Shown one piece after another: positions 5,570 to 45,716 of a stretch of 46,564 nucleotides of DNA. Position 1 is the stretch's first letter, and every line of letters starts with the position of its first letter. A program made the translations under genes and the position numbers. The notes under the pieces were generated by a model that was not told where the DNA came from, ran no database searches, and saw only the letters and a list, made by a program, of their open reading frames with translations. Source of the stretch: Paludibacteraceae bacterium (GTDB taxonomy: Bacteria > Bacteroidota > Bacteroidia > Bacteroidales > Paludibacteraceae); the NCBI GenBank assembly GCA_017450605.1, contig JAFSTG010000042.1, positions 1 through 46,564 on the forward strand, read 5' to 3'.

Positions 5570-7324
5570 TTAAGAATACTGCAATGCAACATCGTTTACA
5601 TCTGCTGGATATATACTCATTTCACACTTCTTACAATCGAAATGTAGCGCAAATATGTTCTTGCCGCTTCTCAGGTAAGCCGGCTCACGCCGATCTGCTG
5701 CTTGCGACCTGCTGCTTGCAACCTGCTTGCGGCATATACCCATCTCGCGAAGAATACAGTAGCGGCATGTCATAAGAGCCCCAATCTCTTCTTTGCGTGT
5801 GAGACGAGTTCGCGACCTGTTACTTGCTGCCTGCGACCTGCTACTTGCTGTCTGCAACCTGCTACCTGCTATCGTCTCACGACGCATAGTGTTGAGCACT
5901 GAAGCCGGTATAAACCACGGCTGAGAGATCTCAACGCTAATACTTGAAGCCTCATAAGGAGTGTCGCCTAACTTGCTTAGTTGGGTGAGGATGTTATTAA
6001 ATGCCTGCTCGCTGTTGCGAGCAGGTGTCTTTTCGCATTCAAACTCTTTGAACATATCACCAATGCTGAGGCGGAAACCTCTGTCGGTCTCCGCAAAGAC
6101 AATATCCACGGGCAGGCGGCGGCATGTCTTGCTCTTGGCGAGTGTGTCGGCAAACTGTTTGTCGTAGTTACGATATACGGCTACTCCCACGGGCACTGAA
6201 TGTCTTGTTGACGGAATTACGCGAAACAAGTGGGGCGCTATTTGACGGGCGCCATTAACGGAAAAACCTAAGTTGCCTATCGTCAGACCGTCGCCGTTAT
6301 GTAATTCAGTGGAAGTATTTATATCAATGCTTCTACCCGTTTGCTCCGAGCCAAACACCACACCTATCTCTTCGCCTGTTGAAGCAGGTGTCTGCCAATT
6401 GGCAATCTTTCCTTGAACGGGGAAGAAATAGTCGGTGGCTCCGCGATGGAAAGTTTTTTCGGGGTCGGGAGTGAAGTCGATATACACATTGCCTTTTGAT
6501 GCTCTCTTGTATTGAGGGTTAACCGCGAAAATGGCATCTAACTTCCCCCGATAGTATGCTACTATGTTTCTTACGTAGTTCTCGTCTTTAAGTCGCCCCT
6601 CTATCTTGAACGAAGTAGCTCCTGACTCTAATAACTCTAAAAGGTGAGCCGAGCGGTCCATGTCAAGCAACGATAGAGCATACTTGTCGTGCTCTATCAT
6701 TTTCATATCTTTATCTAACAGGTCGTAGCGGTAACGGCACAACTGTGCACAGCAACCTCGGTTGGCACTCCTGCCTGTTACGTACTCGCTCATATAGCAT
6801 CTACCCGAATAACTGACACATAGCGCCCCGTGTACGAATACTTCAAGTTCGATGTCGGTGTTATCACTTATCTCTTTTATTTGCTCGGGGTTTAGTTCGC
6901 GGGCGAGTACAACTCTCTTAAAACCCATTTCCTGCAGACGCAAAACCTGCTCTGTCGTGCGGTTGTCGCATTGTGTAGACGCATGCAGTCTCAGTGGTGG
7001 CAATTCGTAGGATAATAATCTCAGGTCCTGAATCAGAATACCGTCAGCTCCCGCTTCGTATAGTTGCCAAATCATATCAACGGCATCGGCTATCTCATCG
7101 TCGTGAAGTAAAGTGTTAACCGTAACCCATACGCGGCAGTCGAATATATGGGCGTAGCCGCACAACTCGGCTATGTCGGCAATGCTATTGCCGGCTGCCT
7201 GACGTGCACCAAAACGAGGGGCACCGATATAGACCGCATCTGCTCCGGCATCAATAGCAACTTTGCCCACTTTCAAATCGCGAGCAGGAGCAAGAAGTTC
7301 TATTTGTTGAGACTGATTGAACAT
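5570..7324 (-). CDS. U32 family protein (peptidase U32 / RNA hydroxylation type) with repeat insertions
   Basis: The N-terminal half is a typical U32 domain: IELLAPARDLKVGKVAIDAGADAVYIG, the HGALCVSYSGRCYMSEYVTGRSANRGCCAQLCRYRY cysteine region (given here as family landmarks, about residues 165-200) and FKIEGRLK. Characterised U32 relatives (RlhA, TrhP) hydroxylate RNA and bind an Fe-S cluster or a metal through such cysteines; a peptidase role is doubtful. The C-terminal region keeps two more cysteine pairs, CRYC...C and CKKC, close to the end. Two stretches around this region, about residues 485-504 and 533-545, are encoded by 7-bp tandem repeats and read as low-complexity Ser/Arg/Gln/Ala peptide. 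The frame stays open across both, so the gene looks functional. It lies between the HerA-like ATPase and the lipoprotein in one probable operon. Confidence 0.9.
   Translation of the reverse strand: MFNQSQQIELLAPARDLKVGKVAIDAGADAVYIGAPRFGARQAAGNSIADIAELCGYAHIFDCRVWVTVNTLLHDDEIADAVDMIWQLYEAGADGILIQDLRLLSYELPPLRLHASTQCDNRTTEQVLRLQEMGFKRVVLARELNPEQIKEISDNTDIELEVFVHGALCVSYSGRCYMSEYVTGRSANRGCCAQLCRYRYDLLDKDMKMIEHDKYALSLLDMDRSAHLLELLESGATSFKIEGRLKDENYVRNIVAYYRGKLDAIFAVNPQYKRASKGNVYIDFTPDPEKTFHRGATDYFFPVQGKIANWQTPASTGEEIGVVFGSEQTGRSIDINTSTELHNGDGLTIGNLGFSVNGARQIAPHLFRVIPSTRHSVPVGVAVYRNYDKQFADTLAKSKTCRRLPVDIVFAETDRGFRLSIGDMFKEFECEKTPARNSEQAFNNILTQLSKLGDTPYEASSISVEISQPWFIPASVLNTMRRETIAGSRLQTASSRSQAASNRSRTRLTRKEEIGALMTCRYCILREMGICRKQVASSRSQAADRREPAYLRSGKNIFALHFDCKKCEMSIYPADVNDVALQYS
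5693..5727 (-). repeat. Heptanucleotide repeat array inside the U32 gene (5 units)
   Basis: Plus-strand units are ATCTGCT, GCTTGCG, ACCTGCT, GCTTGCA, ACCTGCT at exact 7-bp spacing. On the coding strand they read as AGCAGGT/CGCAAGC-type units and encode VASSRSQAAD, between the GICRK and LRSGKN segments of the protein. Confidence 0.85.
5815..5870 (-). repeat. Heptanucleotide repeat array inside the U32 gene (8 units)
   Basis: Plus-strand units are ACCTGTT, ACTTGCT, GCCTGCG, ACCTGCT, ACTTGCT, GTCTGCA, ACCTGCT, ACCTGCT. The coding strand gives a seven-residue periodic peptide, RLQTASSRSQAASNRSR. Its 56 bp is not a multiple of three, so the flanking bases also contribute to keeping the frame. Confidence 0.88.
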
Positions 7325-7334
7325 GAGAGAATTT

Positions 7335-7376
7335 CAGGAATCAGGAGTCAGGAATCAGGAATCAGGAATCAAGAAT
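7335..7376. repeat. Heptanucleotide repeat array, CAGGAAT type (6 units)
   Basis: Six exact 7-bp steps: CAGGAAT, CAGGAGT, CAGGAAT, CAGGAAT, CAGGAAT, CAAGAAT. It fills most of the 57-bp spacer between the HerA-like ATPase and the U32 gene. The shared YARG core suggests the same family as the NNYARGT arrays. Confidence 0.88.
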
Positions 7377-7381
7377 TACTA

Positions 7382-8983
7382 CTACTTGAGTAGTCCCATC
7401 AGCCCGCGCATAAGCGATTTGCCTAATTCGCGCCCGATGGTATTCATCGCGCTGTCGGCAGCTTTCTCAAAAGGCGACTTGGTAGCGCGACGGGTTGTTG
7501 TGGTGCGTGTAGAGCTTGTTCGTTGAGTCTGACGTTGCAACTCTTTTTCGAATCGTTGACGTTCTTTCTCTCGTTGTTGCTGCTCTTTCTCTCGTTGCTT
7601 TTGCTCCTTCTCACGCTGTTGCTGCAGCTCTTTCTCACGCTGAGCCGCCTGTTTGGCATGCTCGGCTTGCTGTCGCTCGTACTCGGCTTGTCGTTGCTCG
7701 GCATCTGCTTGCTCTTGCAACTCCTCGTATGCTGACTGACGATCAACATATTGTTCGTATTTGCCATATAGGTCGCTCGACAGGATAACATCGCGGCGGC
7801 GACTGTCGTCGATAGCCGACATCGAGCTTTGCGGACATATAATCTTTGCGCGTTCTACAATCTGCGGCTTGCCTTCTTCGTCCAGAAAACTGACAAGTGC
7901 TTCGCCGGTGCCAAGGTCGGTTATGGCATCTTCGGTCTTAAACGACGGGTTAGGTCTAAACGACTGTGCCGCTGCCTTTACGGCTTTCATCTCGGCTGGC
8001 GTGTAGGCTCGCAATGCATGTTGCACACGGTTGCCTAACTGTGCTAATACAGAGTTTGGCAGGTCGGAAGGAGACTGGGTTATGAAATACACACCAACAC
8101 CTTTCGAGCGGATAAGTTTCACTACTTGTTCCACTTTCTGAACTAACACTTTCGGGGCATCAGAGAAGAGCAGGTGTGCCTCGTCGAAGAAAAAGACCAT
8201 CTTGGGCTTGTCCATATCGCCTGCTTCGGGTAAGTTCTCGAATAATTCAGAGAGCAACCATAATATAAAAGTAGAGTAGAGTAGCGGATGCTGGAATAAC
8301 TTGACGCAGTGCAAGATGTTTACATAGCCTTGTCCGTTGCTGTCGGTCTGCATCCAGTCGAATATCTTCAAGTCAGGCTCGCCGAAGAATACATCGCCTC
8401 CTTGGTCTTCTAAAGCCAACAATGCACGCTGAATTGCTCCGAGCGACTGCTGAGTCATAGTGCCGTATAGAGTGGTGTACTCCTTAGCATGCTGAGCAGC
8501 AAACTGAAGCATCGCCTTCAGGTCTTTGAGGTCGATAAGTAGCAATCCTCTGTCGTCGGCTATTCGAAAGATGATATTCAGCACCCCTTCTTGCACTTCG
8601 CTCAAACCTAAAAGTCGAGAGAGAAGTAACGGCCCCATTTCTGATATTGTGGTGCGGACCGGGTGCCCTGCCTCGCCATATACATCCCAAAACCGTACAG
8701 GAAACGCTTTAAACGAGAAATCCTCTATCCCCATCTTGCTAAGACGCTTCTGCAAAGCATCGGTCATCTGCCCCGAGCGACACAAACCTGAAATATCACC
8801 TTTTACATCAGCAAGAAATACCGGGACACCTAATTCTGAAAATGCTTCAGCCATCACTTCGAGTGTGATAGTCTTGCCTGTGCCTGTAGCGCCAGCAATA
8901 AGGCCGTGGCGATTAGCCATACGAGGGTCAAGATAGACGTAATCTTCGCCTTTACCCATAAGAATTTTGCCGTTATGTATCAT
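7382..8983 (-). CDS. HerA/FtsK-type ATPase, DUF853 (YjgR) family
   Basis: 533 residues, usual for this family. The Walker A motif GATGTGKT is at residues 31-38, directly after the short N-terminal strand ([14 protein letters not shown]). [11 protein letters not shown] near residue 270 is Walker B, and the [14 protein letters not shown] segment is the sensor region with conserved Gln. The C-terminal part (about 395-490) is a Gln/Arg/Lys/Glu-rich predicted coiled coil of repeated QREKEQ units, followed by a short tail ending MRGLMGLLK. HerA-like ATPases act on DNA ends or move substrates; the role of the DUF853 group is not established. It is first in an operon with the U32 gene, with a good promoter just upstream. 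Confidence 0.9.
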
Positions 8984-9017
8984 TTCGCTTAAGATTATTT
9001 AAGATTATTCAACATTG

Positions 9018-9139: not shown

Positions 9140-10630
9140 ATGAGACGACAATTATTTGTATTACTCATATTGGTGTTTGCACTTAGCGATATGTCAATCG
9201 CTTCAGAGCCTGATAGCTTGAAAATCAGCGTGGCAGATTACCAATCGATACTTCGCCGATTAGATGCTCTGGAGAGCAAACAGTCGCAGTCGGTAGATGC
9301 TCATACCGGTGCTACTTCTCTTCAAGCACGCACTGGTGCTACCATAGTTGACACCGCGAAATCTACAACCGATAGTGTGCCGCAGGCGGTAGAGGAGAAG
9401 TCGAAACGTAGCGGGCGACTCACCATTGGTGGTTATGGCGAGGCTGTGATGAGCCGACATTTTTATTCCGACCATTTCAACAGATATATCAACCCTTCGG
9501 CTCATAGAAACGACCGCTCAAACGGCACGGTTGACCTTCCGCATGTCGTAATAAACCTCGGTTACGATTTTGGGCACGGATGGTCGTTTGGAACAGAGAT
9601 AGAGTTTGAGCATGGCGGTACGGAGTCGGCTGTGGAGATTGATGCCGATGAGGCAGGCGAGTATGAGGCAGAGGTGGAGAAAGGCGGTGAGGTGGCTCTT
9701 GAACAGTTTTGGATAAACAAAGAGTTCTTCCCGTTGCTAAACCTCAGAATGGGCGAGATAATAGTGCCTGTGGGCATGACTAACTCTCATCATCTGCCAA
9801 CCGAGTTCTTCACTTCTTATCGCAACGAAGGCGAAATGCAACTCTTTCCTTGCACTTGGCATCAGATAGGAGTAGAGTTGTGGGGTAGAAACGAGTATGT
9901 GGGTTATCAGGCTCAGTTCCTTGCAGGCTTAGATGCCGAACGTTTTTCTGCACCGTGGTTTGTGCATTATGGCGCTACCTCACCTTACGAATTTAAGCTT
10001 GCCAACGGATATGCTTTTGCCGGTCGTGTTGACGGCTATGTCCCTAATAGCGGACTTCGACTCAGTATGAGCGGTTATGTTGGTACTTCGTTTCATAACA
10101 CTCAGTATGCCGGATCTTATAGCAGTAAATACGATAAGATACTTGCTACCCTTGCTATTGCAGCATTCGATTTTCAGTGGGAGCGTTTCGGCGTTATAAT
10201 GCGCGGGAATATAGATTACGCGCACCTCAGTAATGCAGCCGAGGTATGGGCATTGTTCCAAAATTTGAGCAAACACACCTCGCAGGACGGCTCGCCCCGT
10301 ACAGGAAGCCCTGTGTCGTCGCAAGCCCTTTGTGGAGGTTTACAAGTTGGTTACGATATATTCCACTATTTACCTGCTATGCAAGGCAGACGGCAGAAAC
10401 TTATCCCGTTTGTAGTATATGAATACTATGACCCCGTATTCGAGAATAGCACTACCTCTTTCAAGTATGAATATATGAAACGACATCGTGTGGCAGCCGG
10501 TGTTAATTACTATCCCATACCGGAGGTGGTGATTAAAGCCGAATATTCGCGACGATTCCTTCCCGATGGTTACAATGATGAACCTTCCGTGAATTTTTCG
10601 GTAGCCTATTCAGGATGGTTTAAGATATAG
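9140..10630 (+). CDS. Outer-membrane porin-like beta-barrel protein
   Basis: 496 residues with a signal peptide (RRQLFVLLILVFALSDMSIAS) followed by a short predicted coiled-coil segment (ISVADYQSILRRLDALESKQ) and a linker rich in Ser and Thr. From about residue 95 the sequence is alternating amphipathic strands with aromatic residues (GRLTIGGYGEAVMSR, VVINLGYDFGHGWSFGTEIEFEHGG), ending VAYSGWFKI. This is the layout of Bacteroidota phosphate-selective-porin-like proteins. It is the first gene of a four-gene locus; imelysin follows after 65 bp. I infer it provides an outer-membrane route for the substrate of the imelysin and oxidoreductase. Confidence 0.82.
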   Translation: MRRQLFVLLILVFALSDMSIASEPDSLKISVADYQSILRRLDALESKQSQSVDAHTGATSLQARTGATIVDTAKSTTDSVPQAVEEKSKRSGRLTIGGYGEAVMSRHFYSDHFNRYINPSAHRNDRSNGTVDLPHVVINLGYDFGHGWSFGTEIEFEHGGTESAVEIDADEAGEYEAEVEKGGEVALEQFWINKEFFPLLNLRMGEIIVPVGMTNSHHLPTEFFTSYRNEGEMQLFPCTWHQIGVELWGRNEYVGYQAQFLAGLDAERFSAPWFVHYGATSPYEFKLANGYAFAGRVDGYVPNSGLRLSMSGYVGTSFHNTQYAGSYSSKYDKILATLAIAAFDFQWERFGVIMRGNIDYAHLSNAAEVWALFQNLSKHTSQDGSPRTGSPVSSQALCGGLQVGYDIFHYLPAMQGRRQKLIPFVVYEYYDPVFENSTTSFKYEYMKRHRVAAGVNYYPIPEVVIKAEYSRRFLPDGYNDEPSVNFSVAYSGWFKI

Positions 10631-10695
10631 TTATGGCTGCAATTCAAACAATTTGAATGATTCAAATATAATATCAAATATAAAAAACAACAACA

Positions 10696-11841
10696 ATGAA
10701 AACAATTAACTATTATGTCATTACACTGATGACAATTGTAGCGGTGCTATTCACGGCATGCAAAGAAAACGGTCCTCAAGATGAGGATTCTAAAATCAAA
10801 AACGGGTCGCAAGAAGCGGTAGATGCAGCATGCAACCAGTGGAAACAAAGTCGCCAATATTGGGAGTGGTCGGAGGCATTTCTTTTCGGTCCGGCTACCA
10901 CCTATGGTATCGACCCTCATACCGACACATGGCCTTTTGCTAAGGCTCAGTTCGAGAACCTGATGAAGAAGTATAATCCGGCAAGCGACGAGGATGATGC
11001 CGCATTTATTGACGAGTATATTGCTACAGGGCAAAGTTCGGCTGGTTTTCATGCTGTAGAGTATATTATTTTCCGCGATGGTCAACCTCGCAGTATTTCC
11101 GACTTCACAGAAGACGAGGTATATTATGCTGTTGCGGCTTCTAAGGACCTCTATCTTGCTGCTATTAAGTTGGTTGCAGCGTGGGGTGGCGAGATAAGTA
11201 AAGATGAGGAGAAAATCCTTGAAGATGCCGAATGGGAACCGGAAAACAACTATGGGGAGGAGCATTTTCTCAACCAATCGGGCACGAATGCAGCCGTACA
11301 GATTATTGAAGGTTGCCACGATATCATAGGAGAGGTGTCGGAGGCTAAAATAGGCTCGGCATACACCGGCGAAGATACCGACTATATAGAGTCGCCTTAC
11401 GCTCATAACTCAATTCAAGACTTCAAAGACAACGTCTTATCGTGCCAGCATGCTCTCTTTGGCGGACTCGATGCTACGCAACCTCTCGAAGGCTCGCTAA
11501 TCGCTTATACCGATGCTGTGCCTGCAATGCAAGAGCAGAGCGCAAAGGTGAAAACAGCACTCGCAAATGCTATAGCAAAGATAGAGGCAATGAAGAAACC
11601 TTTCGTTCTTAACTATTCGGATATTTCGAGCAAAAATGCTATGGATGCGCTCAACGAGTTAGACGAAGAACTTGACGAGTTGGAAGACCTGCTCAAAGCA
11701 TACGCTAATAACGAAACTCAAAACACACAACTTAAGGCTACCGCTGAGAAATATTATCAGAATGTAGTACTTGCTACCTATCGCGGACTTGCCGACCAAG
11801 GCAAACGTCTTGCTGAGCGTGTTGAGAAGATTTCTCAGTAA
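10696..11841 (+). CDS. Imelysin (peptidase M75 family) lipoprotein
   Basis: 381 residues. The lipobox LFTAC puts the lipid on Cys22. The family motif GxHxxE is present as GFHAVE at residues 117-122. Long alpha-helical segments rich in Glu and Lys follow, as expected for the imelysin four-helix fold. Imelysins are mostly not peptidases; several (IrpA, EfeO-like) are linked to iron uptake and bind a metal near the GxHxxE site. It lies between the porin and a di-haem oxidoreductase, a pairing known in iron-regulated imelysin loci of other bacteria. A role in periplasmic metal binding is inferred from that context. Confidence 0.92.
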   Translation: MKTINYYVITLMTIVAVLFTACKENGPQDEDSKIKNGSQEAVDAACNQWKQSRQYWEWSEAFLFGPATTYGIDPHTDTWPFAKAQFENLMKKYNPASDEDDAAFIDEYIATGQSSAGFHAVEYIIFRDGQPRSISDFTEDEVYYAVAASKDLYLAAIKLVAAWGGEISKDEEKILEDAEWEPENNYGEEHFLNQSGTNAAVQIIEGCHDIIGEVSEAKIGSAYTGEDTDYIESPYAHNSIQDFKDNVLSCQHALFGGLDATQPLEGSLIAYTDAVPAMQEQSAKVKTALANAIAKIEAMKKPFVLNYSDISSKNAMDALNELDEELDELEDLLKAYANNETQNTQLKATAEKYYQNVVLATYRGLADQGKRLAERVEKISQ

Positions 11842-11916
11842 CATTTGAAGGTGTATAATTTCTACTGCAATATACGAAAAAGAGCAATAACACCAAAACT
11901 AAAAACATATAAGAAT

Positions 11917-13566
11917 ATGAATATCAAGCATTATTTAAGCATTGTGGTTGCAATAGCGATGGTGGCCTGCAAAGAGACGCCATCGGTTATTGAAATCGGC
12001 GACCCAGACCCTGCGAAAACTTATTCCGAAGAGTATTACTCGGGCGGCAAACTTGGTACTGTGTTTAATGCCACAGCTTCAGCCTACGAGCAACCTTCGC
12101 CCGCAGTAGAAAACGGCGGTTATTCATTCGATTTCCAGATGGGCGAGTATTTCTTCGAAAAGAATTACAACACTAACTCGGAAGGTGCTTTTCACGGACT
12201 TGGTCCTCTCGCAGTTCGCGAGGGCTGTCTGTATTGCCATCCTGCTTACGGACACGGCAAACGCCAAGATAGTTATCATGGTAAGACAATGGGCAATGGC
12301 TATCTGCTCGTTTTATACGAGAAGATGGATGGTCAGGACAGTTATCTTAGTTCACTTACCGGTATGCCTCAGACCTTAGCATACGGTCCGTTTAAGGCTC
12401 CTATCGACGAGGATAAGATTCGTATCGAATGGAAAGACTACACCGACGAGTGGGGCAACCGCTTCTCCGATGGCGAGACTTATTCGCTGATATACCCTGA
12501 GGTAACGATTCCGGAAGATGCTTATTATGTTCCTCTGCTGGCTACAGTTAACGGTGAACCTAATACCGTAGTTCCTCACGATCAGGTAGGAGTACTGCTC
12601 GAATCGACAATAGGTATTTATGGTACAGGTCTTATCGACGCTATTCCCGACGATTCTATTACCGCACAATGGAGTGCTGAAGAGCAAGCATATAATGCAG
12701 GTTATCTTAAACATTGGAAGAGTGCTTGGTTTGAAGGCGGAGCATGGAAAACTTTCTATAGTGGCTTAGACGGCAATAAGTATGTGCGTCGTTTCACCTA
12801 TGCTATGTCGCGCGGACCGGTACAAGACGGTGCCGGAGCTAACGCTATTTGGAATATCACTAACGTAACTCGTCCCGACCGCCGATATCACTACATGACA
12901 GCTGCATACGCCGAGAAAGCAAGCAAAGACCCTGAGGTGCAAGCAGGATTTGCTGAGTGGATAAACACTCAGGCTAATAAAACCGACAACCCCGAGTTCT
13001 TTACCGACGATGTAGAGCAGAATATCTATAATTACCTGATGTCGAAGAACTTGCCAGTTGAGATGACTGAGAAGCAGTTCACTCAACTTATGGTATGGCA
13101 CCGTGGCTTGGCTGTCCCTGCTGCTCGTAATATCGACGATGCTCAGATTCAGCATGGTAAGGAGTTGTTCTCGCAGATTGGTTGTGCACGCTGCCACCGT
13201 CCGAGTTGGACTACCGGTGCCGACGATGTTCACGACCCAAATAACTCACTTTGCAACAACAGCAACATGCCTCGTTATCCGTATCAGAAGATATGGCCAT
13301 ATACCGATATGGTTCAGCATAAACTATGCATGGTCAACGATATTCGCACCGGGTGGTGTCGTACTACACCTTTGTGGGGACGTGGACTATCAAAACTCGT
13401 TACCGGTGCCGAAGATCGTCTGCACGACTGCCGTGCACGTAACACCTTAGAGGCTATCATGTGGCATGGCTCTCAAGAATCGGATGCACGCGAATCGGTA
13501 GAGCAATTCCGGCAGTTGAGCAAAGAAGACCGTGAGGCGGTAATTAAATTCATTGATGCAATTTAA
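11917..13566 (+). CDS. Di-haem oxidoreductase (DUF1111/DHOR) lipoprotein
   Basis: I place the start at the ATG at 11917, 549 residues. The longer frame from a TTG at 11845 has no signal-like start, whereas 11917 opens a clean lipoprotein signal (IVVAIAMVAC, Cys18). Two haem-binding CXXCH motifs are visible: CLYCH at residues 104-108 and CARCH at 423-427, the spacing of MauG-like di-haem proteins. RPDRRYHYMTAAY and GAEDRLHDCRARNTLEAIMWHG near the end are typical DUF1111 landmarks. The enzyme should act in the periplasm or at the envelope. It is followed after 17 bp by its probable cytochrome c synthase. Confidence 0.92.
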   Translation: MNIKHYLSIVVAIAMVACKETPSVIEIGDPDPAKTYSEEYYSGGKLGTVFNATASAYEQPSPAVENGGYSFDFQMGEYFFEKNYNTNSEGAFHGLGPLAVREGCLYCHPAYGHGKRQDSYHGKTMGNGYLLVLYEKMDGQDSYLSSLTGMPQTLAYGPFKAPIDEDKIRIEWKDYTDEWGNRFSDGETYSLIYPEVTIPEDAYYVPLLATVNGEPNTVVPHDQVGVLLESTIGIYGTGLIDAIPDDSITAQWSAEEQAYNAGYLKHWKSAWFEGGAWKTFYSGLDGNKYVRRFTYAMSRGPVQDGAGANAIWNITNVTRPDRRYHYMTAAYAEKASKDPEVQAGFAEWINTQANKTDNPEFFTDDVEQNIYNYLMSKNLPVEMTEKQFTQLMVWHRGLAVPAARNIDDAQIQHGKELFSQIGCARCHRPSWTTGADDVHDPNNSLCNNSNMPRYPYQKIWPYTDMVQHKLCMVNDIRTGWCRTTPLWGRGLSKLVTGAEDRLHDCRARNTLEAIMWHGSQESDARESVEQFRQLSKEDREAVIKFIDAI

Positions 13567-13583
13567 AACTTAAGTATAGGCGG

Positions 13584-15833
13584 ATGAAATCTGTAAATAC
13601 TGTAAAGGCAGTAAAGGCAATCGCTTTCTCTCTTATGGGAGCGATTGTCTTGCTGCTTGTTGTGGCTTCTATAGTCGAGAAATTCAAAGGGACAGAGTTT
13701 GTTGCCCGCTATTTTTATACATCAACTCTTACTATATGTCTATGGGTGGCAGCTGTGGTGTTTTCTCTCTGGCATTTGTGTAACGTTTTGTTTGTTAAAA
13801 CGTCAGATGCGTCAATAGGTGCTAAGCTATCGCAATTGGGAGTGTTTGGTTTGCACTTCGCTTTTGTTCTTATCCTTGCCGGAGCACTACTCACTCACCT
13901 ATTTGGGGTGCAAGGAGCAGTTGAGTTACGCGAAGGAGAGGCTACTACCGCTTATATCGACAAAGACCATGATTATCAAATCCGCAAATTCCCTTTTTCT
14001 ATTACTCTCACCAATTTTCAAGTGCTAACTTATCCCGGCACCGATACTCCTCGCGACTATGTATCTACTATCATAGTGGATGGTGTGAAGGGGCAAGTGT
14101 CGATGAATAAAATATTCAAGTATAAAGGCTATCGTTTCTATCAATCGGGTTACAATGGCGATGGTCATACTGTTGTTCTCCTTCTCAATCACGATCCTTG
14201 GGGCATAGCCGTTACCTACACAGGCTACCTTCTGCTATTACTTTCGATTCTCGTATTTTTCTTCTTGCCCGATACGCATTTCCGATTACTTGTAAAGCGT
14301 CTGAAAGCAGAACTTGCAGGGGCTTCATCTCTTCGTATGTTAATGGTTGTTTTATTTGTTACATCTGCTACTTATGGTTTGGCTTCGCCACAGACTCTGC
14401 CTGAGCAGCAGTCAGACAGATTAGGCAATCTTTGTGTGTTCTACGGCGGCAGGTTACAGCCACTTAGTTGTCTGGCAACCGACTTTACAGAGAAACTTTA
14501 TGGCAAGTCATCGTATCAGGGTATGACAGCCGAACAGGTGTATGCCGGTTGGCTCCTGATGCCCTATTCGTGGTTAGACGAGCCGATGTTAAAACTCAAA
14601 TCTGCTGATCGCAAGTTATTAGGTTTGAAGGGTCGATATGCTACTTACAACGAGTTGTTTGCTGCTAAGAACGCCGGTTTACAATTATCAGCTTACTCGA
14701 CAGAGAAGATGGCACTTGTATATATGCTGTTGCATGGTGAACTGACGCGTATCTATCCGTATGTAACCGACACAACAAACGCTGCGTCATCGCTTGTCTG
14801 GTATTCGCCAAGTAGCGACTTGCAACTTGGTATGCCCGACGAACAATGGTTTTTCATTCGTAAGTCGGTGGATTATATCGGAGAGTTGGCTTTCGAGAAA
14901 AACTATTCACGTATTGATACCGTAATTAGTAAGATAGCCAAATATCAGCAATCGGTGGCAGGAACGTCAATACCCTCTGAGCGACGCTTTGTTATCGAAC
15001 AGATGTTTCGCCGTATTCATTATAGCAAGCCTATGGCTATGGCTGCGGTAACTATCGGACTGATGCTCTTTTTAGTGTATATGTTGCTTCTATCGCATAG
15101 GAATAGCCTTCCTAAATGGTTAAGTGCAACGGCATTATGGCTGATGGTGGTAGCCGAGTTATTCCTCTCTGTGATGCTTGCGCTGAGGTGGTATGTGAGT
15201 GGTCATGTGCCGCTTAGCAACGGCCACGAGACAATGCAGACCTTGGCTTGGATAGCAATGCTTGTGGCTTTAGGGGCAAGTGCTCAACTAAGCAATGACA
15301 ACCATGCTGTGTCTCGTCTGTTTGTGTTGTCGGCAGGTTGGCTGATAGCAGGATTTGCCTTGCTTGTGTCGATGATGACGGCAAGCAATCCGCAGATAAC
15401 ACCGCTTATGCCGGTGTTGCAGTCTCCGTTATTGAGCATACATGTAGCTGTGATTATGCTCTCTTATGCGTTACTGTTTTTTATTGCTATCAACTCGTTA
15501 GCAGCATTGCTGAGTAAGAACAGGAATATGCAAGTGCATCTTCTCGTAAGCCGGCTACTGCTTTATCCTGCTGTATTCCTTCTTACAATAGGCATTTTCA
15601 TTGGAGCGATATGGGCTAATATAAGTTGGGGACGTTATTGGGGATGGGACCCTAAAGAGGTGTGGGCACTGATAACCATGCTTGTTTATTCATTGCCGCT
15701 TCATAGCAGTCAGTTGTCATGGCTTAATAAGCCAAAGACGTTCCATCTATATTGCGTTGTGGCATTCCTTACGGTGCTATTTACCTATTTCGGCGTGAAC
15801 TTCCTACTTGGCGGTATGCATGCGTATAATTAG
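13584..15833 (+). CDS. ccsA: Cytochrome c synthase, CcsB-CcsA (ResB-ResC) fusion
   Basis: 749 residues. The N-terminal third is ResB/CcsB-like, with membrane segments at about 10-30, 45-70 and 85-108 and a periplasmic strand region (VEREGEA-like, SFSITL, RFYQSGYN). The C-terminal third is CcsA/CcmC-like with about seven or eight membrane segments and the haem-handling WWD motif ISWGRYWGWDPKEVWAL (about residues 679-695), and conserved His in GHVPLSNGHE. System II synthases of this type export haem and attach it to CXXCH motifs. Being directly downstream of the di-haem lipoprotein, it is probably dedicated to that protein. It overlaps the convergent Ntn hydrolase gene by 4 bp. Confidence 0.92.
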   Translation: MKSVNTVKAVKAIAFSLMGAIVLLLVVASIVEKFKGTEFVARYFYTSTLTICLWVAAVVFSLWHLCNVLFVKTSDASIGAKLSQLGVFGLHFAFVLILAGALLTHLFGVQGAVELREGEATTAYIDKDHDYQIRKFPFSITLTNFQVLTYPGTDTPRDYVSTIIVDGVKGQVSMNKIFKYKGYRFYQSGYNGDGHTVVLLLNHDPWGIAVTYTGYLLLLLSILVFFFLPDTHFRLLVKRLKAELAGASSLRMLMVVLFVTSATYGLASPQTLPEQQSDRLGNLCVFYGGRLQPLSCLATDFTEKLYGKSSYQGMTAEQVYAGWLLMPYSWLDEPMLKLKSADRKLLGLKGRYATYNELFAAKNAGLQLSAYSTEKMALVYMLLHGELTRIYPYVTDTTNAASSLVWYSPSSDLQLGMPDEQWFFIRKSVDYIGELAFEKNYSRIDTVISKIAKYQQSVAGTSIPSERRFVIEQMFRRIHYSKPMAMAAVTIGLMLFLVYMLLLSHRNSLPKWLSATALWLMVVAELFLSVMLALRWYVSGHVPLSNGHETMQTLAWIAMLVALGASAQLSNDNHAVSRLFVLSAGWLIAGFALLVSMMTASNPQITPLMPVLQSPLLSIHVAVIMLSYALLFFIAINSLAALLSKNRNMQVHLLVSRLLLYPAVFLLTIGIFIGAIWANISWGRYWGWDPKEVWALITMLVYSLPLHSSQLSWLNKPKTFHLYCVVAFLTVLFTYFGVNFLLGGMHAYN

Positions 15834-28432: not shown

Positions 28433-29800
28433 ATGAAAACCATTTATGTTTGCAATAATTGTGGCGCGCAGGCACCTAAACTGCTCGGCCGTTGTCCCGA
28501 ATGTGGCAAATGGGGCACCTACGAGCAAGAACTCACTGCACCAGCAGGTAGCACTTCCTCCGGCAAACGGACTCTTTCTCTAAACGGTGGAGGTGCACCT
28601 CAACTCGTCAGCGAGGTTCAAGCAGGTGAAGAGGTGCGCATCGATATGCATAATAACGAACTCAACCGAGTGCTCGGCGGAGGGTTAGTAAAAGGTAGTT
28701 TAGTGCTATTAGGAGGAGAACCAGGAATTGGTAAATCTACACTCGCTCTGCAGGTGCTTATGCAGATGGGGGGAATGAAAACACTTTATGCCTCGGGCGA
28801 AGAAAGTGCAAAACAACTTAAAATGCGTGCCGAACGATTGCATGGCTCGCCTGATAATCTGTATATTCTCAGCGAGACTTCACTCAATAGGATTCTCGAA
28901 CACGTAAAACTGCTCAAACCCGAATTGGTGGTTGTTGACTCTATTCAGACTGTCGGCTTGGAGGAAGTGGATAGTACGGTAGGCAGTATATCGCAAGTAA
29001 GAGAATGTGCCGCGCGTATCCTCTCGGTGGCAAAACAGCAAAATATACCCTTTGTTATAATAGGGCATATCAACAAAGAAGGTAGTCTGGCAGGACCTAA
29101 AGTGTTAGAACATATAGTGGATACGGTGCTCCAGTTCGAGGGCGACCAGCATTATATGTATAGAATACTACGAGCACAGAAAAACCGGTTTGGCTCAACA
29201 AGCGAACTGGGTATATTCGAAATGCAGCAGGACGGATTACGAGAGGTTACCAACCCCTCCGAACTCCTACTCGGTAACAACTGGGCTGACGGAGGATTGT
29301 CGGGCATCGCTATCGCTGCCGCTGTCGAAGGTGTCAGACCATTACTTATCGAAGTGCAGGCGCTCGTCTCTTCCGCTGCCTATGGCACACCACAACGAAG
29401 CAGTAACGGATTCGACGGACGACGACTCAATATGCTGCTCGCTGTTCTCGAAAAACGTATAGGCTTCCGACTACCACAGAAAGACGTATTCCTTAATATC
29501 GCCGGAGGAATACGAGTCAACGACCCTGCTATCGACCTCGCTGTGCTGGCAGCTGTACTCTCATCGAATATGGATATCGCCATTCAAAGCGGAGTCTGCC
29601 TGACAGGAGAAGTCGGACTCGCAGGCGAAATACGACCCGTCAACCGAATAGAACAACGAGTACGAGAAGCAGAAAAGTTGGGATTCAACAAGATTATCAT
29701 ACCCGACGGACAAAAACTATCTTTCCAACCCACCAGTCTGCAAATCATACCCGTTAAAAAAGTAAGCGAAGCCTTCCAACAACTCATCATCGGCAAGTAG
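28433..29800 (+). CDS. radA: DNA repair protein RadA (Sms)
   Basis: 455 residues. The N-terminal zinc finger CNNCGAQAPKLLGRCPECGKW, Walker A GGEPGIGKST, the RadA KNRFGST motif and the Lon-protease-like C-terminal domain (GGIRVNDPAIDLAVLAAVLSS) are all present. RadA is a hexameric helicase that helps branch migration in recombination. The last codons, GGC AAG TAG, form the first unit of a 7-bp repeat array, so the stop codon lies inside it. Its 3' third uses CGA for Arg more freely than its 5' part. Confidence 0.96.
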   Translation: MKTIYVCNNCGAQAPKLLGRCPECGKWGTYEQELTAPAGSTSSGKRTLSLNGGGAPQLVSEVQAGEEVRIDMHNNELNRVLGGGLVKGSLVLLGGEPGIGKSTLALQVLMQMGGMKTLYASGEESAKQLKMRAERLHGSPDNLYILSETSLNRILEHVKLLKPELVVVDSIQTVGLEEVDSTVGSISQVRECAARILSVAKQQNIPFVIIGHINKEGSLAGPKVLEHIVDTVLQFEGDQHYMYRILRAQKNRFGSTSELGIFEMQQDGLREVTNPSELLLGNNWADGGLSGIAIAAAVEGVRPLLIEVQALVSSAAYGTPQRSSNGFDGRRLNMLLAVLEKRIGFRLPQKDVFLNIAGGIRVNDPAIDLAVLAAVLSSNMDIAIQSGVCLTGEVGLAGEIRPVNRIEQRVREAEKLGFNKIIIPDGQKLSFQPTSLQIIPVKKVSEAFQQLIIGK

Positions 29801-29861: not shown

Positions 29862-29870
29862 AGCGGGGTA

Positions 29871-29952
29871 CGCCGGTTTTTAACCGGCGGCATCACACTA
29901 CACACAGGCAAGTAAATTCAACAACGTCCATTCCACCGGTTATTAACCGGTG
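29871..29952. repeat. Pair of CCGGTT/AACCGG hairpins
   Basis: Two perfect 8-bp stem hairpins in direct orientation: CGCCGGTT, TTT, AACCGGCG at 29871-29889 and CACCGGTT, ATT, AACCGGTG at 29934-29952. They share the core CCGGTTNTTAACCGG and each is followed by a CATC-containing segment, so they look like copies of one palindromic repeat. They directly follow the heptamer array. Confidence 0.8.
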
Positions 29953-30238
29953 CTTCATCTAGTCCCCCCACCTAAACAGTAAACAAGTAACAACAGATTT
30001 ATTATATAGAAGCAGCCTTCCACCACAACATGCGCAATATCCACATTACTTGACATTTAGGCTAACCAACCAAATAACACATTAAAAATCAACATAACTC
30101 CCTATAATACATCGCCTTAAACGGCTTTCTCTCCTGTCATCTTCCTGTCATGTTCCTGTCAAGAACGAGTAAAGTGCAAAAAAGAAAGACAATTCAAGTA
30201 AAATACAATAGATTTTTTCAAGACTACTACTTGCTATC
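29953..30238. other. Non-coding spacer before the HD-domain gene
   Basis: Together with the arrays above it makes a 438-bp gap without a gene. It holds an A/C-rich stretch, an 11-bp triple repeat, and no ORF worth calling. I find no TTTG/TAnnTTTG promoter. Just before the next ATG the sequence ACTACT, ACTTGCT, ATCATGA again has 7-bp spacing. Confidence 0.6.
30132..30164 (+). repeat. Three 11-bp tandem repeats, TCCTGTCA type
   Basis: TCCTGTCATCT, TCCTGTCATGT, TCCTGTCAAGA, in exact 11-bp steps. It is a different repeat from the heptamers and lies 75 bp before the HD-domain gene. Confidence 0.8.
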
Positions 30239-30835: not shown

Positions 30836-30849
30836 GCTGAACCTGAAAT

Positions 30850-30906
30850 AACAAAATTCTGCATTGTATATAAACATTATCGTTATTTGCCGTGCAGAAT
30901 TTTGTT
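30850..30906. repeat. Perfect 14-bp inverted repeat after the HD-domain gene
   Basis: AACAAAATTCTGCA at 30850-30863 and its complement TGCAGAATTTTGTT at 30893-30906, with a 29-base loop. It could be a terminator-like hairpin, though no long T-run follows, or the remnant of an inverted-repeat element. Confidence 0.7.
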
Positions 30907-30995
30907 GTAATGCAACACCCTTGCGTATAAAAACATTAAGTAAGTAGCAAAATTTGCAGCTTAATCCCTAAAAATATAGATGTGGTGGCGCGATA

Positions 30996-31027
30996 TTTGC
31001 ATATTCGAAAAAAATAGCGTATTTTTG
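30996..31027 (+). promoter_or_regulatory. Promoter of the DUF6089-uppS-bamA cluster
   Basis: TTTG at 30996-30999, 20 bp, then TATTTTTG at 31020-31027. The TTG start codon at 31056 follows a leader of about 22 bases. Confidence 0.72.
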
Positions 31028-31055
31028 TAGGCTAATTTGAGTAAGTGTAGGCTTT

Positions 31056-31766
31056 TTGAAAATTCGTAAGGCAATATTGGGTTGCGTAATGCTCTTGGCA
31101 AGTTGCTCCGCACTGTACGCCGATATACCCTTCTACTTAGTAGAGTGGGGGGTGATGGGCGGCACTTCGTATTATGTGGGCGACCTGCATGAGCATATTT
31201 TTATGCGTCCTCAATATGCTGCAGGCATGCAGGTTAGCTATCATTTCAATAGGCGATGGAGTATAACAGCTAAGTCGCAATTCTGTGAGATAGGCTTTAT
31301 TAAATCGTCAGGACTACCAAACAACCGTTTGATAAACACCGATGTAACGGCAGAATATAACTTCTTCCGATTTGATATGCGCCAATACGACCCCCGTATT
31401 AAGCCGGTAACGCCGTATATTGCAATAGGATTAGGCTGGAGTTTATTCGGAAAAAAATTCGCCGATAACTCTATGTATGTGCCGTTTGTACTCGGAATGA
31501 AATGGAAAATGGCGCCGCATTGGACGATGAATATAGCATGGCAGCACCAGATTCATTTCGGTTTCGATTCCGATAAGATAGAAAATAGTGCGAACTACGA
31601 CAATACCTACAAACTCAACAAAAGTAATATTATCAGATACGATTTGGTATCAACTCTCACTCTTGGCATATCTTTTGCATTTGCTCAGAAACCGAAGAAG
31701 TGTATGATTTGCAAAGACGAGAAACCTAAGAAAATAAAATGGGAACAACGAGTACCACGCGACTGA
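31056..31766 (+). CDS. DUF6089 outer-membrane beta-barrel protein
   Basis: 236 residues. A TTG start is chosen: the frame has a stop 15 bp upstream, a good promoter just before, and only the long form gives a proper signal peptide with a Lys/Arg n-region (MKIRKAILGCVMLLASCSALYA). The mature protein has WGVMGGTSYYVGDLHEH and short amphipathic strands (YIAIGLGWSLFG, WTMNIAWQHQIHFG), as in the small barrel family found before uppS and bamA in Bacteroidales. It ends in a Lys-rich tail with CMIC. Linked to envelope assembly by position only. Confidence 0.85.
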   Translation: MKIRKAILGCVMLLASCSALYADIPFYLVEWGVMGGTSYYVGDLHEHIFMRPQYAAGMQVSYHFNRRWSITAKSQFCEIGFIKSSGLPNNRLINTDVTAEYNFFRFDMRQYDPRIKPVTPYIAIGLGWSLFGKKFADNSMYVPFVLGMKWKMAPHWTMNIAWQHQIHFGFDSDKIENSANYDNTYKLNKSNIIRYDLVSTLTLGISFAFAQKPKKCMICKDEKPKKIKWEQRVPRD

Positions 31767-31808
31767 AATAGCCCAAAGAGGGTACTTTAATTGGGTAAAA
31801 AAGAGAAT

Positions 31809-32546
31809 ATGAAAGAGCAGATAGATATAAACAGATTGCCGCAACATGTTGCTATCATTATGGATGGTAATGGCAGGTGGGCTAAACAGCATGGTGCTGA
31901 GCGTACTATGGGGCATCAGCATGGTATTCAGCCAGTGCGAGATGTGTCGGAGGCGGCTGCAGAACTTGGTATTAAATATCTTACACTCTACGCTTTCTCT
32001 ACCGAAAATTGGAATCGACCGGCTGAAGAAGTTAATATGTTGATGCATTTGCTTGTTGACACTATCGAAAAAGAAACTCCCACGTTGAATAAGAATAACA
32101 TACGTCTTCTCACCATCGGCGATACCGACAGGCTGCCTTTGGCAGTTCATGAGAAGTTCGAGCGCTGCATAGAGCAGACGTCGGCTAACACAGGACTGAA
32201 TCTGGTGCTTGCGCTCTCTTACTCTTCGCGTAGCGAGATAACGCAGGCGATGCAGGATATCGCCCGAATGGCAACCTACGGAGGAGTGAGGGTGGAAGAT
32301 ATAAACGAAGATTTTGTGAGCAGTTGTTTGCAAACAAAGAATATTCCTGACCCCGATTTGCTTATTCGCACCAGTGGGGAACTCCGGTTGAGTAACTTCC
32401 TGCTCTGGCAAATGGCATATACCGAACTCTATTTCACCAATATCTGCTGGCCGGACTTCGATAAACAAGAGTTTTATAAGGCAATAATCGACTACCAACA
32501 TCGTGAACGCCGCTTCGGAAAAACTTCAGAACAAGTAACTAAATGA
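31809..32546 (+). CDS. uppS: Isoprenyl (undecaprenyl) diphosphate synthase
   Basis: I start it at the ATG at 31809 (245 residues) in preference to the TTG at 31791, as the ATG has a purine-rich upstream stretch. [14 protein letters not shown] is the catalytic signature, [13 protein letters not shown] the isoprenyl-binding loop and [27 protein letters not shown] the C-terminal signature. It makes the carrier lipid for peptidoglycan and O-antigen. Its stop overlaps the bamA start by 4 bp (ATGA), so the two are translationally coupled. Confidence 0.96.
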
Positions 32547-37062: not shown

Positions 37063-37818
37063 ATGAGAACAAAAATGGTAGCAGGCAACTGGAAAATGAA
37101 CAAGACCCTGCAAGAAGGTGTAGCATTAGCTACAGAAATTAAAGAAGCATTGAAAAATCAGAAGCCTGCATGCGAGGTGGTTATCGCCACTCCTTTTATC
37201 CATCTGGCAACAGTTAGTCAAGTCATAGAAGGCAGTCCTATTCATCTGGCAGCCGAGAACTGTGCAGACAAAGCATCGGGTGCTTTCACCGGTGAGGTGT
37301 CGGCAGCTATGGTTCGTTCTACCGGAGCCGAATACTGCATACTCGGTCACTCAGAGCGTCGTGCTTACTATCACGAGGACTATGCCATACTGCGCGAGAA
37401 GGTGCTCCTTGCTCTCGAAAACGGCTTGAAACCTATATTCTGCATTGGCGAGGTTAAGGAAGAACGTGAAGCAAATATCCATGAGCAGGTAGTAAAAGAC
37501 CAACTCGAGGGTTCGGTGTTCAACCTCTCGGCCGAAGATTTTGCCAAAGTAACACTTGCTTACGAACCTGTTTGGGCTATTGGTACCGGACTGACAGCAA
37601 CACCGGAACAGGCACAAGAGATGCATGCATATATCCGTTCGCTTGTTGAGAAGAAATATGGCAAACAGGTGGCAGACGACACTACTATTCTCTATGGTGG
37701 CAGTTGCAATGCTAAGAATGCTGCCGAATTGTTTGCTAACCCCGATGTTGACGGCGGTCTGATAGGTGGTGCTTCGCTGAAAGCTCCCGATTTCTGCACT
37801 ATCATTGCAGCACGCTGA
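37063..37818 (+). CDS. tpiA: Triosephosphate isomerase
   Basis: 251 residues. [24 protein letters not shown] with catalytic His, [11 protein letters not shown] with catalytic Glu, and the phosphate-binding [14 protein letters not shown] and [11 protein letters not shown]. It interconverts dihydroxyacetone phosphate and glyceraldehyde-3-phosphate in glycolysis; gapA is at the window end. A degenerate 7-bp periodic stretch starts at its stop codon. Confidence 0.98.
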
Positions 37819-37852
37819 GAATGTAGAAAGTTGATGGTCGCTGGTATAAAGT
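37818..37852 (+). repeat. Degenerate heptamer stretch at the tpiA stop codon (5 units)
   Basis: AGAATGT, AGAAAGT, TGATGGT, CGCTGGT, ATAAAGT at exact 7-bp spacing, each ending GT. The first unit begins with the last base of the TGA stop. AATATTT and AGTAAAT follow in phase. It resembles the NNYARGT family in decayed form. Confidence 0.55.
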
Positions 37853-39143: not shown

Positions 39144-39857
39144 ATGTATAAACGTATTCTTCTTAAACTCAGTGGCGAATCGCTAATGGGTAGTCGCGGG
39201 TACGGAATCGACCCCGATCGACTTACTGATTATGCACGTCAGATTGCTGCTGCCTGCAAGTCGGGCGTAGAGGTGTGTATAGTAATAGGTGGCGGCAATA
39301 TTTTCCGCGGTCTTAGTGGCTCTAAGCAAGGTTTCGACCGTGTGAAAGGCGACCAGATGGGAATGCTTGCTACTGTTATTAACTCGCTTGCATTGGGCTC
39401 TGCTCTCGAGCAGGAAGGTCAATCGGCACGTGTGCTTACTTCGGTTCGCATGGAGCCGATAGGCGAGTTGTATTCGCCTGAACATGCCCGCCGACTGCTC
39501 AACGAGGGCAATGTGGTGATAGTGGCAGGTGGTACGGGAAATCCGTATTTCACTACCGATACAGCTTCGGCTTTACGGGCAATAGAGACTTGTGCTGAGG
39601 TGATGCTGAAAGGTACACGCGTTGATGGTGTCTATTCTGCTGATCCCGAGAAAGACCCCGAGGCTGTGAAGTTCGATTCGATAACCTACGATGAAGTTCT
39701 TGCTCGCGGACTGCGAGTGATGGACCTTACGGCTATTACACTTTGCAAGGAAAACGGTATGCCTATCTATGTGTTCGATATGGATAAGGTCGGTAACCTT
39801 GGCAAAGTACTCAAAGGTGATAATATAGGCACTAAGGTCGTAAGTGGCAAGTCGTAG
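39144..39857 (+). CDS. pyrH: UMP kinase
   Basis: 237 residues. KRILLKLSGESLMG, IVIGGGNIFRGL, the DQMGMLATVINSLAL allosteric region and GGTGNPYFTTDTASALRA are the UMP kinase landmarks. It makes UDP from UMP. The end of the protein (TKVVSGKS) is encoded by 7-bp repeat units and the stop TAG is inside one, so the usual C-terminus has been replaced or extended. frr follows after 87 bp, the usual bacterial order (pyrH-frr). Confidence 0.97.
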   Translation: MYKRILLKLSGESLMGSRGYGIDPDRLTDYARQIAAACKSGVEVCIVIGGGNIFRGLSGSKQGFDRVKGDQMGMLATVINSLALGSALEQEGQSARVLTSVRMEPIGELYSPEHARRLLNEGNVVIVAGGTGNPYFTTDTASALRAIETCAEVMLKGTRVDGVYSADPEKDPEAVKFDSITYDEVLARGLRVMDLTAITLCKENGMPIYVFDMDKVGNLGKVLKGDNIGTKVVSGKS

Positions 39858-39866
39858 GTAGCAAGA
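39832..39866 (+). repeat. Heptanucleotide repeat array across the pyrH stop codon (5 units)
   Basis: CTAAGGT, CGTAAGT, GGCAAGT, CGTAGGT, AGCAAGA in exact 7-bp steps. The pyrH stop codon is the TAG within CGTAGGT. Confidence 0.8.
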
Positions 39867-44598: not shown

Positions 44599-44602
44599 GT
44601 TT

Positions 44603-44831
44603 GTTTAGTGTTTAGAGTTTAGTTATCGTATATCACAAGTTCGTTTACACTTTTTGCAAACCAATTTGCTGTTTCATAACAACTTCGTAATTATTTATAA
44701 AAAGATGTCTATCATTGATTTGCAGAGTTGTTTTCCAATACCAAGAAAACCCATAAAGATACAACCAAAAGTGTAAACGATGTTCTGATACACGTCATTT
44801 AGTGTTTAGTGTTAACTTGCTACTTCCTTCC
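44603..44831. repeat. TTTAGTG-type heptamers either side of an inverted-repeat element
   Basis: Left array: GTTTAGT, GTTTAGA, GTTTAGT (44603-44623). Right array: ATTTAGT, GTTTAGT, GTTAACT, TGCTACT, TCCTTCC (44797-44831), which runs into the 3' end of rnhA and contains its stop. Together with the element between them they fill the 221-bp spacer. Confidence 0.7.
44627..44794. mobile_element. Possible MITE-like inverted-repeat element (168 bp)
   Basis: Arms of 28 bp, 44627-44654 and 44767-44794, match at 24 positions, with a perfect 14-bp core (TCGTTTACACTTTT and AAAAGTGTAAACGA). The interior has no ORF. Both sides carry the same TTTAGTG sequence. This is the shape of a short non-autonomous element, or of a large RNA hairpin. 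Confidence 0.5.
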
Positions 44832-45467: not shown

Positions 45468-45562
45468 GTCCAATCTTTTTACTACTTTTGCAACGCTTTA
45501 AAAATAATAGTCAATATAAGCAATAAAATAATAAAAAATCAAATATCGGCTATTTGCTGTTG

Positions 45563-45634
45563 GGTTCTGTAGTTCAATGGATAGAATACGGGTTTCCTAA
45601 ACCTTAGATCCGGGTTCGATTCCCGGCAGGACTA
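45563..45634 (+). tRNA. tRNA-Arg (anticodon CCT)
   Basis: 72 bases: acceptor GGTTCTG/CAGGACT with discriminator A, D-stem GTTC/GAAT, anticodon loop TTCCTAA (anticodon CCT, reading AGG), T-stem CCGGG/CCCGG around TTCGATT. The anticodon stem CGGGT/ACCTT has one mismatched end pair (C-T) and the variable loop is only 4 bases, but the rest is sound. CCA is not encoded. No TAnnTTTG promoter is seen upstream. Confidence 0.88.
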
Positions 45635-45650
45635 CTTCTTAAAGTTTATG

Positions 45651-45680
45651 AATATCCGCCAAACGGCGGATATTTTATTT
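45651..45680 (+). terminator. Terminator of tRNA-Arg(CCT)
   Basis: A perfect 10-bp stem AATATCCGCC/GGCGGATATT with an AAAC loop, followed by TTATTT. Confidence 0.85.
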
Positions 45681-45681
45681 T

Positions 45682-45716
45682 ATCTGCAACCTACCACTTT
45701 CTACCTTCGATTTCCA
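45682..45716. repeat. Heptamer stretch after tRNA-Arg(CCT) (5 units)
   Basis: ATCTGCA, ACCTACC, ACTTTCT, ACCTTCG, ATTTCCA in exact 7-bp steps; minus-strand form of NNYARGT, partly degenerate. It directly follows the tRNA terminator. Confidence 0.65.

What the first reader, a model, noticed from the sequence alone, without database searches (positions are those of the whole stretch)
5693..45716. A dispersed family of degenerate 7-bp tandem repeats (about NNYARGT)
Exact 7-bp periodicity with a shared YARG(T) core appears at eight or more places: 5693-5727, 5815-5870, 7335-7376, 29792-29861, 37818-37852, 39832-39866, 44603-44831 and 45682-45716. Arrays have 3-10 units and vary much more in the first three positions than in the ARGT core. 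Heptanucleotide repeats of this kind (STRRs) are known from heterocystous cyanobacteria; I am not aware of a described equivalent in Bacteroidales. Eight in 46 kb implies many hundreds in the genome, so something must spread or maintain them.
Basis: partly seen in the sequence, partly recalled or inferred. Interest (0 to 1): 0.85.

Follow-up and report, generated by a model that had tools for sequence, protein, structure and literature searches.

The report
Seven-base repeat arrays at gene ends
Short arrays of an imperfect seven-base repeat sit mostly at the ends of genes in this uncultured bacterium; they belong to a known but unexplained class of bacterial repeats that is common in its relatives, each with its own unit sequences, and they look like by-products of DNA copying rather than a new regulatory system.

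Summary
The repeats are real, but fewer and less uniform than reported. Of eight listed places, five carry YARG-type 7-bp arrays, one holds two very short arrays of another unit, and two are not above chance. In the whole assembly, strict four-unit YARG arrays occur at 17 loci, five of them in this window, so "many hundreds" is wrong; about 100 arrays of all units is likely.

Period 7 is still the commonest short tandem period in noncoding DNA of 151 Bacteroidales loci not chosen by pattern (53 arrays; 0 at period 5, 4 at 6, 19 at 8, 25 at 11), and none was found in 26 beta/gamma-proteobacterial loci. Different species carry different units at the same gene junction, often matching the local stop or start codon, so birth looks local. 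Identical units recur more within than between genomes, so some also spread. The window's family abuts stop codons (9 of 11 noncoding arrays; 2.85 expected).

Best reading: lineage-specific degenerate heptanucleotide simple-sequence repeats, tolerated at gene ends and protein linkers. Heptamer repeats are already in print, including TAACTGA arrays in Bacteroidetes such as Paludibacter. Why 7 is favoured remains open; array-rich and array-poor species of one genus make it testable.

The parts
5691..5727 (-). GCARGTN array, about 5 units, inside the U32 peptidase ORF, in a loop between Cys motifs
5815..5871 (-). GCARGTN array, about 8 units, inside the U32 ORF, in the linker between the DUF3656 domain and the Cys-rich tail
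7334..7376 (+). TCAGGAA array, 6 units, between the HerA-like and U32 genes, antisense to both, starting 6 bp after the HerA-like stop codon
29793..29863 (+). GCARGTN array, 10 units, beginning at the stop codon of radA
39837..39866 (+). GCARGTN array, about 4 units, supplying the last codons and the stop codon of pyrH
44602..44622 (+). short TTTAGTG-type array, about 3 units, a different unit
44798..44813 (+). short TTTAGTG array, 2.3 units, a different unit
5570..7324 (-). U32 peptidase gene with two arrays in its coding sequence
7382..8983 (-). HerA-like ATPase gene, upstream neighbour of the TCAGGAA array
28433..29800 (+). radA-like gene whose stop codon is part of the first unit (name from its domains and recalled RadA architecture)
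39144..39857 (+). amino-acid kinase family gene, pyrH-like (name recalled), ending inside the array

Best explanation
The arrays are degenerate heptanucleotide simple-sequence repeats, a lineage-specific crop of a repeat class common in Bacteroidales noncoding DNA. Most likely course: (1) short tandem duplications of about 5-9 bp arise locally, often from the sequence around a stop or start codon (shown by comparison at the radA end and at one junction in rumen relatives; strand slippage as the means is inferred). (2) Steps of 7 bp, less often 8, are preferentially extended to three or more copies (shown as counts; cause unknown). (3) They survive where reading frame does not matter, at gene ends and junctions, or in tolerant protein linkers such as that of the U32 peptidase (shown as placement; survival as the reason is inferred). 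(4) Some units are copied to other loci of the same genome, giving the GCARGTN and TCARGAR families (indicated by unit sharing; template switching or gene conversion is inferred). (5) Point changes make them degenerate (inferred). No function is needed.
For: Lag 7 dominates noncoding tandem periods in 151 Bacteroidales loci not chosen by pattern and after removal of duplicates in all 163 loci (65 at lag 7); none in 26 beta/gamma loci (27 kb unique noncoding) and none in first-order shuffles at six lags. Same junction, different units: at the radA stop codon in 30 genomes the array differs by species and fits local sequence; one junction in rumen relatives has units like the next gene's start, with copy number differing by multiples of 7. 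The own radA unit GCAAGTAG equals the gene's own end, and a relative ends ggcaagtaa with no array. Placement at stop codons: 9 of 11 against 2.85 expected. Identical units in 6.1% of 296 within-genome pairs against 0.4% of 5384 between-genome pairs. Three of four arrays fold no better than shuffles.
Against: Between G017 and G074 (84-95% identical in the aligned blocks) all seven 7-bp arrays keep their length, including three noncoding by my gene model, whereas two 8-bp arrays change; ordinary slippage predicts change. Nearness to stop codons beyond uniform placement could mean function or a targeted mechanism. Slippage does not by itself explain 7 over 5, 6 or 10. In the unbiased own sample only 1 of 66 array pairs has an identical unit, so spread rests on G058 and on pattern-found loci. 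No direct view of spread between loci.
Confidence: 0.6

Rival explanations
1. A dedicated process writes or moves 7-nt steps: an enzyme (reverse transcriptase, terminal-transferase-like or break-repair activity) adds heptamer arrays at gene ends, so the class is actively spread.
For: Sharp preference for 7 at the extension step whatever the unit; array-rich and array-poor species in one genus; identical units at several loci of a genome; 5 of 17 strict loci in one 46-kb contig.
Against: Several unrelated units in one genome exclude a single template; units match local gene ends at radA; 8-bp arrays behave alike. No candidate enzyme was sought or found.
Confidence: 0.14
2. Regulatory elements: the arrays are binding sites, in DNA or mRNA, for a repeat-recognising protein acting at 3' ends or leaders, as proposed for TAACTGA repeats in Beggiatoaceae (PMC4679880).
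For: Own-family arrays abut stop codons; the GCARGTN unit keeps near-constant A and G across seven loci; one array (5812-5872, minus) folds with z -2.4.
Against: Orthologous gene ends in most of 30 relatives have no scored array, and those that do use other units; arrays also lie inside coding sequence; the neighbouring genes named here are unrelated; three of four arrays fold no better than shuffles.
Confidence: 0.1
3. Phase-variation repeats that switch their genes by changing copy number.
For: Two arrays lie in a coding sequence and 7 bp is not a multiple of 3.
Against: No length change in seven 7-bp arrays between G017 and G074 (not tested in G000); neighbours are housekeeping-type genes.
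Confidence: 0.03
4. Chance or low-complexity artefact.
For: True for two of the eight listed places.
Against: Four window segments at score 10 or more against 0.1 expected; 0 in shuffles and 0 in beta/gamma loci.
Confidence: 0.02

Closest known systems
Heptanucleotide long simple-sequence repeats of prokaryotes (Mrazek et al. 2007, seen only as cited in passages of PMC4679880 and PMC4692102; a look-up under a DOI recalled for it failed)
   Same: 7-bp unit, over-represented, mostly intergenic, many genomes, function unknown
   Different: The passages name Cyanobacteria, Burkholderia, Actinobacteria and Xanthomonas; here Bacteroidales, with strongly degenerate and species-specific units
TAACTGA direct repeats (MacGregor 2015, PMC4679880)
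   Same: Heptamer arrays, also in a few Bacteroidetes including Paludibacter
   Different: One fixed unit, mostly just upstream of start codons in Beggiatoaceae; here other units, own family mostly at stop codons; the TAACTGA dimer is absent from the window (two hits with 1-2 mismatches) and found in 1 of 345 loci
GGGNATC-type repeats of Xanthomonas and Nostoc (PMC4692102, passages seen)
   Same: Heptamers with constant and variable positions, many intergenic loci, length variation between species
   Different: G-quadruplex-forming; the window units have no regular GGG runs
Cyanobacterial STRR (one passage of PMC2670836 seen)
   Same: Usually 7-bp tandem repeats, function unknown
   Different: Cyanobacteria; hairpin potential reported, not seen in three of four arrays here

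Membership tests
Heptanucleotide simple-sequence repeats (prokaryotic LSSR) | Tandem unit of 7 bp, at least three copies | tested here: met
   (five of eight places)
Heptanucleotide simple-sequence repeats (prokaryotic LSSR) | Longer or commoner than chance | tested here: met
Heptanucleotide simple-sequence repeats (prokaryotic LSSR) | Mainly intergenic | tested here: met
   density 24.0 against 2.6 per 100 kb noncoding and coding, own gene model
TAACTGA repeats | Unit sequence TAACTGA | tested here: not met
TAACTGA repeats | Placed a few bases upstream of start codons (Beggiatoaceae) | tested here: not met
   own family: 9 of 11 noncoding arrays at stop codons; one array (C18:16136) probably lies in a 5' leader
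Cyanobacterial STRR | Degenerate 7-bp tandem repeats | tested here: met
Cyanobacterial STRR | Ability to form a hairpin | tested here: inconclusive
   z-scores -0.03, 0.90, -2.41, 0.71
Cyanobacterial STRR | Host is a cyanobacterium; common descent with cyanobacterial units | tested here: not met
   host is in Bacteroidales; units not compared with cyanobacterial ones
GGGNATC-type repeats | G-tracts able to form G-quadruplexes | tested here: not met
   unit listing: units of type YARGTNG and CAGGAAT without regular GGG runs
Phase-variable repeats | Copy number varies between close relatives | tested here: not met
   seven of seven 7-bp arrays unchanged in length, G017 against G074; not testable in G000 itself for lack of a close relative

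The most novel reading that the evidence does not exclude
Bacteroidales cells carry a sequence-independent process that extends tandem steps of seven (and eight) nucleotides, but hardly five, six or ten, and seeds favoured units at gene ends across the genome; the process is strong in some species and weak or absent in close relatives of the same genus.
Probability: 0.2. Interest if true: 0.75.

Novelty: new member of a known kind. Interest (0 to 1): 0.42.

Why it matters
Heptamer repeats have been noted in scattered bacteria since 2007 without a proven cause. Here one genus holds array-rich and array-poor species; the first duplications look local and not tied to 7 bp, while the extension step is. 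That separates two steps and gives a natural comparison for finding the responsible factor. It also shows that such arrays can alter the ends and linkers of ordinary proteins (U32, pyrH).

Tried and rejected
One dispersed family as the whole story: rejected, because several unrelated units coexist. RNA structure: three of four arrays no better than shuffles, one at z -2.4. Rfam around radA (28000-32000): one match, E 0.96, below the family cut-off. A fixed motif in two-copy 7-mers: none seen by eye, units diverse. Two-copy spectrum as proof of a 7-bp birth step: withdrawn after one search showed that many two-copy events are remnants of longer decayed arrays. Column-specific hypervariability within arrays: not claimed, since a few changes copied by block duplication can give the pattern. 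A Pho-box reading of the 11-bp element (Pho box recalled, from no call): its downstream genes are not phosphate genes (names by my reading of the sequences). Orthologous 3' ends of the other own-family genes: few or no relatives among the loci held. My notebook entry after called the G075 linker array a heptamer; one search reads it as 8 bp and the report uses that.

Biases: stretches L163, L165, L170, L172, L179, L199, L218, L219 and L220 came from contigs already known to hold YARG matches; one search recounts without them and the window, dropping only three overlapping loci as duplicates, while removes duplicates but keeps those stretches. Two all-N contigs were counted by mistake and dropped later. 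Gene calls are my own codon-usage model. At C3 and pyrH the stop codon counted lies inside the array itself; without these two it is 7 of 9 against 2.13.
Full report
WHAT WAS CHECKED. The window is contig C2 of a 2.24-Mb, 120-contig, 84% complete assembly. The nearest named relatives by the U32 protein are titled Paludibacteraceae and Bacteroidales MAGs, several from rumen. Five of the eight reported places hold YARG-type arrays, one holds two very short arrays of another unit, and two are not above chance. The five fall into two units: GCARGTN (5691-5727 and 5815-5871 on minus; 29793-29863 and 39837-39866 on plus) and TCAGGAA (7334-7376).

HOW MANY. The strict four-unit pattern matches at 17 loci of the own genome, 69 overlapping matches against 18 for the backward control. 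TCARGAR trimers give 43 own matches against 0 control; in a phylum sample 9 of 148 genomes, the own one included, have any. Among 61 genomes (own, 36 same genus, 24 same order) 44 have the YARG pattern, with counts from 0 to 267, and the backward control is itself high in some, so other heptamers are common too. In the own sample outside the window, 10 arrays of any unit were found in 220 kb at score 14 or more, which suggests about 100 per genome.

THE CLASS. Over 151 Bacteroidales loci not chosen by pattern (256 kb noncoding and 1395 kb coding by my own gene model), noncoding arrays at lags 4 to 12 number 0, 0, 4, 53, 19, 14, 3, 25 and 3; coding ones at lag 7 number 47. After removal of duplicated sequence, in all 163 loci, lag 7 gives 65 noncoding and 38 coding arrays. 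In 26 beta/gamma loci there are none at lag 7 (27 kb unique noncoding; about 6.5 expected at the Bacteroidales density, by hand). One first-order shuffle per locus in three of the sets gave none at lags 5-9 and 11. Within the genus the load varies: 0 in 120 kb (G027), 0 in 40 kb (G014), 0 in 18 kb (G013), 1 in 80 kb (G011), 1 in 40 kb each (G020, G071), 12 in 200 kb (G017), 10 in 267 kb (own, window included); G025 and G034 (2 in 20 kb, 4 in 40 kb) are from contigs with known matches. Some genus members have 8-bp and 11-bp arrays.

WHERE THEY SIT. Of 11 noncoding own-family arrays with both neighbours known, 9 touch or lie within 10 bp of a stop codon, where uniform placement gives 2.85 (P about 1e-4). 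At two of these, C3 and pyrH, the stop codon lies within the array itself; without them it is 7 of 9 against 2.13. Not in that count: four arrays inside ORFs by the gene model, one of which (C18:16136) is probably a 5' leader upstream of the true start; the C27 array near a contig end, which also overlaps a stop; and the long C60:64 array at a contig end. Over all 69 noncoding Bacteroidales arrays with both neighbours, with pattern-chosen contigs and some orthologous arrays included, the excess is similar at stops (23 against 15.1) and at starts (24 against 15.5). Within genes they lie in tolerant places: the U32 linker and a loop between Cys motifs. Between the same two U32 domains other species have other arrays, a TCAACTG heptamer in G081 and an 8-bp AAATGANN array in G075.

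BIRTH. The radA stop codon was read in 30 genomes (the loci returned, of 58 with a match). Lag-7 arrays were scored at the stop in three (own, L293, L310), about 60 bp downstream in L314 and again in L310; by eye L309 and L313 have 8-bp arrays made of the stop-start junction; the rest have no scored array. Each unit fits local sequence. The own unit GCAAGTAG equals the gene end GGC AAG TAG; a relative, L302, ends ggcaagtaa with no array. In five rumen relatives one junction carries TGAATAA-like units resembling the next gene's start in four of five, with lengths differing by multiples of seven, and another shows a 28-bp gain in two. So birth looks local; strand slippage is the inferred means. 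A duplication holding both the stop and the next start keeps both genes intact whatever its length, which may explain the placement (inference).

SEVEN BELONGS TO EXTENSION. Isolated two-copy duplications with clean flanks number 178, 79, 45, 20 and 9 for 5 to 9 bp, against roughly 146, 52, 16, 4.5 and 0.8 expected, summed by hand from the second-order shuffles over nearly the same loci; one locus, L170, holds many of the 8-bp events. The excess is broad. Only longer arrays are sharply 7-specific. The cause is unknown; the idea that 7 nt is the polymerase contact length is reported from Mrazek 2007 in PMC4679880 and PMC4692102.

SPREAD. Units identical up to rotation and strand make up 6.1% of 296 within-genome pairs of distant arrays, 0.4% of 5384 between-genome pairs and 0.5% after shuffling unit letters. 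G058 gives about half of these (20.9% of its 43 pairs); the own sample gives 1 of 66 and G017 3 of 116. The own GCARGTN arrays at seven loci share constant A and G and the same variable columns. The means of spread is not shown.

STABILITY. Between G017 and G074 seven 7-bp arrays have unchanged length, four in genes and three noncoding by my model; two noncoding 8-bp arrays differ in length, with a 16-bp gap in one and a larger difference in the other. This speaks against fast slippage of the 7-bp arrays, on a small sample.

COMPARISON WITH PRINT. Seen: PMC4679880 abstract, passages and the Bacteroidetes section; PMC4692102 passages; PMC2670836 one passage; the rest as search listings. Searches. 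In these no paper on degenerate, unit-diverse heptamer arrays across Bacteroidales appeared, but the library lacks most subscription journals. Heptamer arrays as a kind are known, also in Paludibacter.

VERDICT. A real feature of a known class with an unexplained period preference. The dispersed 11-bp element at 30131-30162 (noticed items) deserves its own study.

Noticed in passing
window 30131-30162 (+), upstream of the HD-domain gene at 30239: An 11-bp direct repeat, three units of TTCCTGTCATS, is part of a conserved element of about 100 bp found at about 24 loci of this genome. In 22 loci aligned, 20 are co-oriented with the downstream gene, 68-262 bp before its start; the genes look diverse (by my reading groES, uvrB, ruvA, ftsA, hpf-like and others). 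Among 60 other genus genomes only G008 and G019 have it. Upstream of groES, 5 of 30 genomes including the own one have an 11-bp repeat, each of different sequence: possibly an operator whose sequence changes fast.
   Followed up: partly
L165 (G041:C158) 11093-14831: Thirteen or more heptamer arrays within 4 kb, in which the unit changes gradually along an array while the 7-bp period holds; the contig was chosen because it had matches.
   Followed up: no
same-genus homologues of window 5570-7324, e.g. L062, L063, L065, L069, L085, L087: The U32 peptidase gene is split: the Cys-rich C-terminal part lies in another frame right after, or overlapping, the end of the main ORF.
   Followed up: partly
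G017 and G074, queries L189:17561-17649, L189:10581-10656, L187:5064-5118: A dispersed repeat of about 50-80 bp, partly matching on both strands, at dozens of places in G074.
   Followed up: no
L170 (G046:C91:20001-40000) 10607-11035: An 8-bp unit ACGCAAAG recurring in a cluster of about 32-bp repeats.
   Followed up: no
window 7555-7718: 21-bp tandem repeats in the HerA-like gene, encoding a Gln/Arg/Glu-rich tail; a coding repeat, apparently unrelated to the 7-bp arrays.
   Followed up: no
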